Positions 1 to 3,569 of a stretch of 64,000 nucleotides of DNA are shown here, piece by piece. The notes beneath the pieces are model-generated. The model had not been told where the DNA came from, did not search any database, and saw only the letters and a program-made list of their open reading frames with translations. Source of the DNA: Prosthecobacter debontii (GTDB taxonomy: Bacteria > Verrucomicrobiota > Verrucomicrobiia > Verrucomicrobiales > Akkermansiaceae); NCBI GenBank assembly GCA_945873125.1, contig CAMCBV010000014.1, positions 1-64,000 on the forward strand. Reading direction: 5' to 3'. A program made the position numbers and the translations under genes. Numbering within the stretch: the first letter of the stretch is position 1; every line of letters begins with the position of its first letter.

Positions 1-199
1 GCATCAGCCATCCCCAAGTGCGGAGCAAATCGATCAACTCCTGCCAACTGCATGGCTGCAAGCAATGCACCAGAGCAAAATAGCGTAACCACCAGAGATA
101 CACTAATCTCTACCATCTCTACAAGAGCGGTTCTGTTGGGCGCTTACATCTAATCTAGATTACGCAACATTTGTTAATAAAGCTAAAGGCATAAGATTT

Positions 200-685
200 A
201 TGTCTATGATAGGCACACAAAATGACCGATGGGGTGCTGACTGGATTGACGACGCTAAACAGGCATTAGGAATTAAGACGAAGCAGTATATAAGAGCTAT
301 CGAATTTGCGATATCAGAAAAAGATATCTCCCAAAAAATGGGCTATGATTTTGTAATTTCAGGGCACTCCCTAGGTGGTGGCCTAGCTGCGGCAGCAAGC
401 GCTGTAACAGGCGCGCCAGCTTTAATTTATAATGCTGCAGGCGTTAATCCTCTTACTTTGCATTATGCTGGTTATGGCGATCTTATAAAAAATCTTGGAA
501 GTAACGTTGTATCGTACAACGTTGGAGGTGAAATTCTTACGAGCGGCCAATTTGCATTATCAGCAATGATACCTACAGCCGCCTCTGCGAATCATTACAC
601 ATTTTGGCCAAGAAATTTTCCATTTTCAACATGGAACCCCGCAACATTACATAGACCTGAACCCACATTTGAAGCTGTAAGATGA
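200..685 (+). CDS. Lipase class 3 / alpha-beta hydrolase fold protein, C-terminal part (possible polymorphic-toxin tip); N-terminus not resolved, same frame is open back to about 107
   Basis: ORF contains GHSLGGGLAAAA nucleophile elbow and GTQNDRWGADWIDDAKQALGIKTKQY, resembling lipase-3 domains found at C-termini of Rhs/polymorphic toxins; stop overlaps next ATG. Confidence 0.6.
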   Translation: MSMIGTQNDRWGADWIDDAKQALGIKTKQYIRAIEFAISEKDISQKMGYDFVISGHSLGGGLAAAASAVTGAPALIYNAAGVNPLTLHYAGYGDLIKNLGSNVVSYNVGGEILTSGQFALSAMIPTAASANHYTFWPRNFPFSTWNPATLHRPEPTFEAVR

Positions 686-1155
686 AAAAAATAACCGAAA
701 AAATATTAACCTATGCATTAGTTCTACAGTTGGCTTCTTGTGGAATCAATTCGAACTACGTCTATCTTATAGATCGTAATCCTGCGCCAAATGGCCAAGC
801 TAATCGTCTCGTGCTTAATTCTTGGAGAGGTGATTATGGCATGGTTAGTTCTGCTAAAAATCACAATCCTAATGATTTGAAATTCAAGATTGATAGAGAA
901 AGATTCCGTAAAGAAAATGGCTCGAAAAAATGGATATTAGAAAATTGGGGGGCTCCTGATTCTAGTCACATTGAAGGCGGCGTGACCTATTATACGTATT
1001 CTCAAAAATCCAAATTAGCCCCGAACTATAATAAGCAGTTCATGTTCACGGATCGTCCTGTAAAGCTGGGTTTTAGGGGAGAAAGATTAGTTGAAATTCA
1101 GGCGTATTTCTCAGATCGTGGCTATAAAGGCCAGCAAGTCGTTGTCTTGCCATGA
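682..1155 (+). CDS. Predicted lipoprotein of unknown function, candidate immunity protein
   Basis: Signal peptide with LASC lipobox; start codon overlaps upstream stop (ATGA). Confidence 0.6.
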   Translation: MKKITEKILTYALVLQLASCGINSNYVYLIDRNPAPNGQANRLVLNSWRGDYGMVSSAKNHNPNDLKFKIDRERFRKENGSKKWILENWGAPDSSHIEGGVTYYTYSQKSKLAPNYNKQFMFTDRPVKLGFRGERLVEIQAYFSDRGYKGQQVVVLP

Positions 1156-1327
1156 TCAACTAAATGCTGAAAAGCAGTTACCAGTTGTCTGTTCCGATAT
1201 AGTTGGATCCGTAATAGCGGCTCCCTTGCTCGGTGTAGGAGGCGAATGGAGTCCTCATACATACAGAGACGGCGGAAAATATATCCAATGGATGCCTGAT
1301 TTATACTAACAACCTAAAAAACGAAAA

Positions 1328-1786
1328 ATGAAATTAATACAGCTTGTATGCATATTGTGTGTGTCTATCAGCGTTTGCTCTTGTGTGACTTGGGTGCGTG
1401 AAGAGAAGAACGATAAGATAACGCAGGGTATGGTTGGGGCAATTATTGAGACGAAACAAGCTTCTAGGATTTGCACTAAAAGTGATATCAAAATAGATGA
1501 ACTAACGCCTGGCTATGGCATCATACCTGATTACCAGAAAAATTTAGCAGAAAACACCTATGTTATAGAACGTTGTCCCGCTGGAACGCGAGGCCGAGTG
1601 ATACGTTTCATCAAGGAGCGAGATGCGAGTCAGCACATTTGGAATTATGTAGAATTTGAAATGGATGATCCGAGATTGAAGCAAAAATATCGAATTATTC
1701 GTATGATGGGCTTGCGCCGTGACGGGAGAGGTACTCCATGGGAAAAAGGTGGCGACTTTAGAGTTGTTAGAAAAATGGACTTGTAA
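1328..1786 (+). CDS. Predicted lipoprotein, tandem paralogue 1
   Basis: Signal peptide MKLIQLVCILCVSISVCSC; near-identical N- and C-termini to the ORF at 1869-2333. Confidence 0.65.
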   Translation: MKLIQLVCILCVSISVCSCVTWVREEKNDKITQGMVGAIIETKQASRICTKSDIKIDELTPGYGIIPDYQKNLAENTYVIERCPAGTRGRVIRFIKERDASQHIWNYVEFEMDDPRLKQKYRIIRMMGLRRDGRGTPWEKGGDFRVVRKMDL

Positions 1787-1868
1787 GAGCCCCCTAGAGC
1801 GTAACACATTGAAACTAGAGTTTCGGGTTTACTTGGTGGTGAGTATGGATGTAGCTCTCCAACAAAAA

Positions 1869-2333
1869 ATGAAATTGATACAGCTTGTATGCATATTATG
1901 TGTGTCTATCAACCTTTGCTCTTGTGTCACTTGGGTGCGAGAAGAGAAGAATGGCCAGATTATTCAAGGAATGGTAGGGGCCGTTATTGAGACTAAATAT
2001 CCAGCCTTTATTTGCAGAGAAACAAACGCGGTTAATGACGATATTTCTAGTGAATATTTTATTTTTGCACCATCTATCCAAGGTGCAAATATGCCCGAAA
2101 ATACCTATGTTGTAGAACGCTGTCCTGCCGGAACTAGAGGACGAGTCATAAGATTCATCAAGGAGCGAGATGCGAGTCAGCACATTTGGAATTATGTAGA
2201 ATTTGAAATGGATGATCCGAGATTGAAGCAAAAATATCGAATTATTCGTATGATGGGGCTGCGCGGAAATAAGCCAAATATGCCATGGGGATCAGATAGA
2301 GACTTTAGAGTTGTTAGAAAAATGGACTTGTAA
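1869..2333 (+). CDS. Predicted lipoprotein, tandem paralogue 2
   Basis: Internal ATG (MKLIQLVCILCVSINLCSC) of the 1719-2333 ORF aligns with start of paralogue 1. Confidence 0.65.
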   Translation: MKLIQLVCILCVSINLCSCVTWVREEKNGQIIQGMVGAVIETKYPAFICRETNAVNDDISSEYFIFAPSIQGANMPENTYVVERCPAGTRGRVIRFIKERDASQHIWNYVEFEMDDPRLKQKYRIIRMMGLRGNKPNMPWGSDRDFRVVRKMDL

Positions 2334-2540
2334 GAGCCCCCTAGAGCGTAACACATTGAAACTAGAGTTTCGGGTTTGCTTGGTGGTGGGCATGGATGTG
2401 GCTCTCCAACAGCAACAAGCAGCTCTTGGCATGAAACCTCCGGTGCTTCGCAACGATTTGCAGAATGGAAACTCGTCGAGGAATGAAATGTTTTGAGTCG
2501 CCAAAGTCCAGTCGATTCAGTAGCAGCTAGGGAAGATTCT

Positions 2541-3569
2541 ATGGATAACAGCAACCTATTTCCAGAATATCGGTTCGGACGGGGCCTGATTGAGCCCGGG
2601 CTCATCTCATTTCTCTCGACTTGTCCGCAAGTCTTGGTCGTTCACGATGGGTGCTTGGGTGAGTTGTTCATCCCGCGGCTTTCAGAATTCACTTTGACGC
2701 CGCCCATGCTCATCGACGTCAGAGAATCGGATTTGGCTGCGATGGAGGCTACCCCAGCCGAAACGGGCATTGTGTATGCCTGTATCCAGGACGACTTGGG
2801 CTTGCCATTCGTCAATGTCGCCTATGCAAAGCGGCTGCGGGTGCACCCGGTGATGTTTGCCAACCCCAGAGACTATCTGTCGCGCAACACCCCGGCCAAG
2901 CAATCCCTGCGGGCAGAGATCGAATCGCAGCGGGCCGCAGGTTTCCTCAAGCTCGATTTTGGTTATGGCGATTTCCTCAACCTCATCCAAGCCTTCGAGG
3001 CGACGCGTGACCGACCCGGATGTATTGTTGAGGTCGGATGCTTCTGTGGGTCGTCCGCCGGTGCGCTACTCTCTTATGTGCGATCGCGACAAGCCGAGCG
3101 CGGGTTCCCAGAACTGTCATTCCATTACATGGACGTCTTCGAAGGATTCAACTATCCCCACGCGATGTCCAGTAGTGACGTCTTCTGGGCGGGCACGCAC
3201 CAGACTGATGGGTTCGAAGCTGTTAGAGAGCGCATTCAGGCCTATGGCCGTGGCGTTGAAGGCATGAGGATCGAAGTTTCCAAATGCAACATCATCACCG
3301 ATCCCATCCCGGAAGAGATCATACGCAACGGGGTGCGATTAGCCAATATAGACGTGGACTTGTACGAAGCGACTGCCGCGGGCTTGGCGCGTATCGCTCC
3401 CTTTGTCGTGTGCGGGGGGATCATGATCTGTGAAGACAGCGGGCATACACCCCTGCTGATCGGCGCACTCAAGGCGCTGGAGGAGTTCGTTCAATCAGAC
3501 ATGGGCAAGAAGTTCTGTCGGCTCGACATGCCGTCTGGCCAAACTTTCCTTGTTAAGGTCGAGGCTTGA
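2541..3569 (+). CDS. TylF/MycF-like class I SAM-dependent methyltransferase
   Basis: IVEVGCFCGSSAGALLSYV SAM motif, LANIDVDLYEATAAGL, CGGIMICEDSGH as in macrocin O-methyltransferase family; start likely ATG 2541 rather than 2493. Confidence 0.65.
   Translation: MDNSNLFPEYRFGRGLIEPGLISFLSTCPQVLVVHDGCLGELFIPRLSEFTLTPPMLIDVRESDLAAMEATPAETGIVYACIQDDLGLPFVNVAYAKRLRVHPVMFANPRDYLSRNTPAKQSLRAEIESQRAAGFLKLDFGYGDFLNLIQAFEATRDRPGCIVEVGCFCGSSAGALLSYVRSRQAERGFPELSFHYMDVFEGFNYPHAMSSSDVFWAGTHQTDGFEAVRERIQAYGRGVEGMRIEVSKCNIITDPIPEEIIRNGVRLANIDVDLYEATAAGLARIAPFVVCGGIMICEDSGHTPLLIGALKALEEFVQSDMGKKFCRLDMPSGQTFLVKVEA

What the first reader, a model, noticed from the sequence alone, without database searches (positions are those of the whole stretch)
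107..2333. Candidate lipase-type toxin tip with downstream lipoprotein immunity array
A lipase-class-3-like ORF (GHSLGGG) is directly overlapped (ATGA at 682-685) by a lipoprotein gene, then two tandem paralogous lipoproteins. A secreted lipase/phospholipase effector followed by lipoprotein immunity genes is an established arrangement in polymorphic toxin and T6SS Tle/Tli loci. None of the three lipoproteins resembles an immunity family I recognise. The toxin N-terminus (delivery domain) lies outside the window or has been lost.
Basis: partly seen in the sequence, partly recalled or inferred. Interest (0 to 1): 0.68.

Follow-up and report, generated by a model that had tools for sequence, protein, structure and literature searches.

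The report
IS-broken Rhs lipase toxin with lipoprotein immunity
The start of this contig holds the broken-off tip of a giant antibacterial toxin, a phospholipase-like enzyme cut by a jumping gene, followed at once by a membrane-anchored protein that most likely protects the cell from that enzyme and that belongs to a different family from the ankyrin-type protectors known for this kind of lipase.

Summary
Window 149-685 is the 3' part of a lipase domain: Ser-Glu-His triad intact, closest solved relative the Enterobacter T6SS lipase Tle6 (7UBZ/9CYS). Its N-terminus is missing because an IS66-type element (window 1-147) sits inside the gene and the contig ends within it. In two same-genus genomes the same domain (52-53% identity) is the C-terminal tip of a large SpvB/TcdB-Rhs polymorphic toxin; other genus members carry the same core with unrelated tips. 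Contig C44 of this genome carries a matching Rhs N-terminal part that runs off the contig end. Lipoprotein A (682-1155) is the best immunity candidate: a relative lies 17 nt behind the lipase in G032, and a lipoprotein signal peptide starts 3 nt behind it in G094. A is not an ankyrin protein, whereas Tle6 lipases are reported to be invariably paired with ankyrin immunity proteins. Lipoproteins B and C (1328-1786, 1869-2333) are 73% identical paralogues with a divergent middle, strongly conserved flanks and no found relatives; extra or orphan immunity genes is plausible but unproven. No T6SS sheath gene (VipA) was found. In this assembly the toxin is probably inactive.

The parts
1..147 (+). 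Right end of an IS66-type insertion sequence (transposase C-terminus at 2-88, inverted repeat ending at 147) in which the contig ends
   Evidence: Same 147 bp at ends of contigs C3, C81, C45 and C40 with different flanks; DDE_Tnp_IS66_C, E=1.7e-7, above cut-off, from the longer copy in C40
148..155 (.). Position of the presumed 8-bp target-site duplication (inferred; the other copy was not found)
   Evidence: IS ends at 147; exact search for ATCTAATC joined to a GTAAGCG-type left end gave nothing
149..685 (+). [quoted passage not shown] catalytic Ser in GHSLGGG, Glu in GGEIL, His in LHRP)
   Evidence: 53% to G032 Rhs tip, 52% to G094 Rhs tip, 7UBZ/9CYS E=4.7e-13; triad alignment
682..1155 (+). 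Lipoprotein A, candidate cognate immunity protein (non-ankyrin), translationally coupled through ATGA
   Evidence: Homologue 17 nt behind the same lipase in G032 (E=8e-8); lipoprotein signal 3 nt behind it in G094; 3 credible copies in 387 genomes
1160..1309 (+). Tail of an open frame between A and B, possible gene remnant, unidentified
   Evidence: Frame 2, ends TAA at 1309; no PHROGs family and no convincing relative in the genus
1328..1786 (+). Lipoprotein B, possible accessory or orphan immunity gene
   Evidence: Lipobox VCSC; 73% to C; no relatives in 388 phylum genomes, plasmids or viral contigs
1869..2333 (+). Lipoprotein C, tandem paralogue of B
   Evidence: dN 0.024 against dS 0.40 over residues 77-131, but 22 of 32 residues changed in 45-76; repeat unit about 545 bp
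1809..1829 (.). Palindromic element TTGAAACTAGAGTTTCGGGTT behind B (second copy 2356-2376 behind C)
   Evidence: Exact pattern occurs 3 times in the genome

Best explanation
The locus is the 3' end of a polymorphic toxin operon. A secreted SpvB/TcdB-Rhs shell protein carried, as its exchangeable C-terminal tip, a Tle6-like phospholipase that would act on membrane lipids of a neighbouring bacterium from the periplasmic side. Lipoprotein A is made from the overlapping gene, exported and anchored, and binds the lipase so that the producer and its siblings are not harmed. B and C are probably additional or orphan immunity lipoproteins, kept against other toxin variants. In this genome an IS66 copy has landed inside the lipase domain, so the toxin is probably dead here while the protecting genes remain. 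Shown: homology, architecture in relatives, gene order, lipoboxes, IS. Inferred: enzyme activity, antibacterial target, binding and protection by A, role of B and C, and that C44 holds the 5' part of the same gene.
For: Lipase is the tip of Rhs proteins in G032 (2827 aa) and G094 (2263-codon open frame). Shell domains SpvB, FG-GAP, RHS and Rhs_assc_core in G032; SpvB, TcdB_midN and RHS in own contig C44. The same core in 11 of 73 genus genomes carries different tips with different small partner genes. Triad conserved, and T6SS lipase effector 7UBZ/9CYS is the best solved relative. Homologue of A at the same place in G032, lipoprotein start in G094. In 80 more distant lipases an ankyrin-type partner lies immediately downstream in 50 and adjacent upstream in 12, with 13 loci holding more than one such gene downstream. 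Tip and lipoproteins have 39-42% GC against 52% in the rest of the window. C44 is the only Rhs relative in the genome at the threshold used, 66% identical to G032, and ends at its contig border.
Against: The link between C44 and the window is not assembled: about 300 residues are missing between them. A and its G032 homologue are only 22% identical. G338 has an A-like lipoprotein without a lipase in the 16 kb around it. No activity or binding has been measured. B and C have no toxin of their own in sight and no relatives. Tc-type shells can also deliver toxins into eukaryotic cells; a lipoprotein partner argues for a bacterial target but does not prove it.
Confidence: 0.84

Rival explanations
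1. Ordinary secreted lipase of the class 3 type with a functionally unrelated lipoprotein cluster behind it.
For: Only weak Pfam Lipase_3 match (E=2.7e-4, below cut-off); the 161-aa ORF looks free-standing in the window.
Against: The ORF is a fragment cut by IS66; in relatives the same domain is the tip of an Rhs protein and lies directly before a lipoprotein gene in all three loci.
Confidence: 0.04
2. The Rhs-lipase is a Tc-like toxin against eukaryotes (for example protists) and lipoprotein A has a helper role such as surface anchoring or folding rather than immunity.
For: SpvB and TcdB-like shell domains; Tli of E. cloacae is also needed to activate its lipase (PMC11470151), so helper roles of partner proteins exist.
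Against: The partner genes change with the tip among genus members, as immunity genes do; A sits behind the tip-coding end; lipoprotein partners of related lipases neutralise them (Tli in PMC11470151; for a different lipase toxin, TilA in PMC10730906).
Confidence: 0.1
3. B and C have nothing to do with the toxin; they are a recent tandem duplication of a lineage-specific lipoprotein that happens to lie here. (This concerns B and C only and is compatible with the best explanation for lipase and A.)
For: No similarity to A; no relative near any lipase or Rhs gene; absent from the other 72 genus genomes searched.
Against: Same low GC as the tip and A; position where Rhs loci often keep orphan immunity genes; conserved ends with a divergent middle fit specificity-determining variation; tandem partner arrays occur at 13 of the 80 relatives and at TslA/TilA loci.
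Confidence: 0.4

Closest known systems
Tle6 / Tli of Enterobacter cloacae (T6SS lipase effector with lipoprotein immunity; PDB 7UBZ, 9CYS; PMC11470151)
   Same: Homologous lipase core with the same Ser-Glu-His triad; lipoprotein partner gene directly behind, overlapping by 4 bases in some members
   Different: Partner is not an ankyrin protein; delivery scaffold is SpvB/Rhs and not T6SS; the helix with Glu458 and Lys461 needed for the activating crosslink is absent, since the protein ends 10 residues after the catalytic His
TslA / TilA of Staphylococcus aureus (type VII lipase toxin with tandem DUF576 lipoproteins; PMC10730906)
   Same: Lipase toxin protected by a lipoprotein; several tandem lipoprotein paralogues at the locus
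   Different: Different secretion route and domain order; DUF576 is not detected in A, B or C; Gram-positive host
TcdB/TcaC-type polymorphic toxins with SpvB and RHS (Zhang et al. 2012, PMC3482391) and their Tox-ABhydrolase tips
   Same: Hydrophobic signal-like N-terminus, SpvB, beta-propeller-type repeats, RHS, exchangeable tip, adjacent immunity
   Different: That survey names Imm65 (partner of Tox-JAB-1) as its only lipoprotein immunity protein; A matches no Pfam family above cut-off

Membership tests
Rhs/TcdB-type polymorphic toxin | RHS repeats and Rhs-associated core before a variable C-terminal tip | tested here: met
   G032: RHS_repeat 8.2e-25, Rhs_assc_core 8.3e-19. For the window gene itself only by inference through C44 (RHS_repeat 1.5e-33)
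Rhs/TcdB-type polymorphic toxin | Tips differ between relatives while the core is conserved | tested here: met
   11 of 73 genus genomes have the core; lipase tip in G032 and G094, other tips in G031, G062, G059, G083, G009, G010
Rhs/TcdB-type polymorphic toxin | Cognate immunity gene directly behind the tip | tested here: met
   Position and homology met; protection itself not testable here
Tle6 lipase effectors | Sequence homology to E. cloacae Tle with the Ser-Glu-His triad | tested here: met
   E=4.7e-13 alone, 1.3e-21 as profile; triad aligned
Tle6 lipase effectors | Ankyrin-repeat immunity protein | tested here: not met
   No ankyrin match in A, B or C, while the control G045 partner scores Ank at 2.5e-9
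Tle6 lipase effectors | Arg180, Glu458 and Lys461 for the activating crosslink | tested here: not met
   Glu458 position is Arg and Lys461 position is beyond the end in window and G032; Arg180 position is Lys in G032 and lost in the window. Also missing in about half of ankyrin-partnered relatives
Tle6 lipase effectors | T6SS delivery | tested here: not met
   No VipA in the 94% complete genome; scaffold is SpvB/Rhs
TslA/TilA | DUF576 tandem lipoproteins and type VII helical targeting domain | tested here: not met
   No DUF576 match in Pfam for A, B or C; Rhs scaffold in relatives

The most novel reading that the evidence does not exclude
Lipoprotein A founds a new, non-ankyrin family of immunity proteins for Tle6-like phospholipases, linked to a lipase branch that has lost the glycation-crosslink activation, so that the lipase no longer needs its partner as an activator; B and C are a second new immunity family under diversifying pressure.
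Probability: 0.35. Interest if true: 0.6.

Novelty: new variant of a known kind. Interest (0 to 1): 0.42.

Why it matters
Tle6 lipases were reported to be invariably paired with ankyrin immunity proteins that also activate them. A lipase of this type on another delivery scaffold, with a different partner and without the crosslinking residues, would show that the toxin core can change both its protector and its activation. It also gives a clean test pair (G032) for how an unrelated lipoprotein blocks a phospholipase, and shows a polymorphic toxin silenced by an insertion sequence while its protector genes remain.

Tried and rejected
Left flank of the IS insertion: exact search for the presumed target duplication joined to an IS66-type left end found nothing. 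Structure models of A (mean pLDDT 51.8, 3 sequences) and B/C (36.6, 2 sequences) are too weak; the PDB fold search with A gave no match below 1e-3. The WGxP...Y motif of A recalled BamE/SmpA lipoproteins, but no Pfam or PDB sequence match supports it, so it is not claimed. Fragment 1160-1309: hits in G076, G084 and G079 fall out of frame in a homoserine dehydrogenase gene and are taken as chance. B/C and A in plasmids, B/C in viral contigs: none. G662 hit for A (E=0.001) judged spurious. Weak Pfam/NCBIfam labels (Prokineticin, DUF4309, DUF6567, SA1320) are below cut-offs and not used. The first ankyrin scan held two wrong-frame queries and was replaced. The lipase tree groups window and G032 (100/98) but their deeper place rests on long branches, so no claim of descent from an ankyrin-partnered lineage is made.

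Full report
WHAT IS THERE. The window begins at base 1 of contig C14 of a 2.88 Mb, 83-contig genome (94% complete). Bases 1-147 are the right end of an IS66-type element. The same 147 bases end four other contigs, each time next to a different sequence, and the transposase tail from the longer copy in C40 matches DDE_Tnp_IS66_C above its cut-off. From base 149 an open frame encodes 178 residues of a lipase domain. Its homology to relatives reaches the codon that touches the IS end, so the IS lies inside a formerly continuous gene.

THE LIPASE. Pfam gives only a sub-threshold Lipase_3 match. Against solved structures the fragment alone finds the Enterobacter T6SS lipase effector 7UBZ/9CYS at E=4.7e-13, and a four-sequence profile finds it at 1.3e-21. 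Aligned with an Enterobacter relative of that effector, the window keeps the catalytic Ser, Glu and His (residue numbers from PMC11470151). The window protein and G032 end 10 residues after the catalytic His, so they lack the helix with Glu458 and Lys461 that is needed for the activating methylglyoxal crosslink in Tle6. About half of the ankyrin-partnered relatives also lack these residues, so this is not a strict marker.

THE MISSING N-TERMINUS. In G032 of the same genus the same domain (53% identity) is the end of a 2827-residue protein with SpvB, FG-GAP, RHS repeats and the Rhs-associated core. In G094 it ends a 2263-codon open frame (52%). In this genome a search with the G032 shell finds one place: bases 3-2522 of contig C44, 66% identical, in a 2366-codon frame that starts with a hydrophobic N-terminus, has SpvB, TcdB_midN and RHS, and runs off the contig end about 300 residues before the lipase would begin. 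C44 is most likely the 5' part of the broken gene.

A POLYMORPHIC SYSTEM. The end of the Rhs core occurs in 11 of 73 genus genomes. Six of them (G031, G062, G059, G083, G009, G010) have other tips, mostly followed by a different small gene, often with a lipoprotein-like signal. That is the hallmark of polymorphic toxins (Zhang et al. 2012, PMC3482391, which describes the SpvB-TcdB/TcaC trafficking class and lipase-like tips). No T6SS sheath protein VipA was found in this genome, so the T6SS label does not apply.

THE PARTNER GENE. Lipoprotein A overlaps the lipase stop by ATGA (682-685). In G032 a homologue (22% identity, E=8e-8, with the shared core K.W I..NWG.PD) starts 17 nt behind the lipase. 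In G094 a reading frame MKKITLALLILMGSNCQN, a lipoprotein signal, starts 3 nt behind the lipase, where the contig ends. Among 387 genomes of the order, only G000, G032 and G338 have a credible A. The G338 copy has no lipase nearby and may be an orphan.

COMPARISON WITH THE KNOWN. Of 80 GTDB relatives of the lipase, 50 have an ankyrin-type gene immediately downstream and 12 have one adjacent upstream; 18 have none by this test. Thirteen loci have more than one such gene downstream. The Rhs-lipase of G045 also has an ankyrin lipoprotein. [quoted passage not shown] The window and G032 are exceptions: A has no ankyrin match. The closest parallel for a lipase with several tandem lipoproteins is S. 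aureus TslA/TilA (PMC10730906), but A, B and C are not DUF576.

LIPOPROTEINS B AND C. They form a tandem repeat of about 545 bp, 73% identical in protein. Residues 77-131 are held by purifying selection (dN 0.024, dS 0.40), residues 45-76 differ at 22 of 32 places, and the last 21 residues have 9 changes and no silent one. This looks like a functional scaffold with variable specificity patches. No relative was found in 388 phylum genomes, the genus, plasmids or viral contigs. They share the low GC of the tip and A (39-42% against 52%). An immunity role is possible, and I give it somewhat better than even odds.

MECHANISM, STEPS SHOWN AND INFERRED. Shown by sequence: lipase with intact triad, Rhs-tip position in relatives, exchange of tips, coupled lipoprotein gene, IS in the gene. 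Inferred: secretion of the Rhs shell, release of the lipase into a neighbour, hydrolysis of membrane phospholipids from the periplasmic side, and block of the lipase by the anchored lipoprotein A. In this assembly the toxin is probably inactive; the immunity genes would still protect against kin that carry intact copies.

VERDICT. A real, well-supported polymorphic toxin tip with a probable new immunity family; a new variant of a known kind, of moderate interest.

Noticed in passing
L018 (contig C81) 2603-3277 and 920-2609, - strand: Another IS66 copy end adjoins an alpha/beta-hydrolase ORF (GHSMG; weak Abhydrolase_6 and DUF900) followed by a 214-aa ORF and a 347-aa lipoprotein; possibly a second hydrolase gene cut by the same IS.
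   Followed up: partly
window 1809-1829 and 2356-2376; G000 C10:23056-23076: Palindrome-bearing 21-mer TTGAAACTAGANTTTCGGGTT occurs only three times in the genome, twice behind lipoproteins B and C and once between pta-like and PNPase-like genes.
   Followed up: partly
window 1160-1309: Unidentified open-frame tail between A and B, perhaps the remnant of a lost gene.
   Followed up: partly
L145 5617-6219 (-) and 5154-5624 (-): G009 carries the same Rhs core with a tip that shows an HLGTPGGIGCIVV motif recalling L,D-transpeptidase-like toxins, followed by another lipoprotein; not supported by Pfam.
   Followed up: partly
L118 5325-5762 (-): A-family lipoprotein in G338 with no lipase or Rhs gene in the surrounding 16 kb: possible orphan immunity gene.
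   Followed up: partly
window 2493-3569: TylF-like methyltransferase ORF just behind the locus, at normal GC, marking its right border.
   Followed up: no
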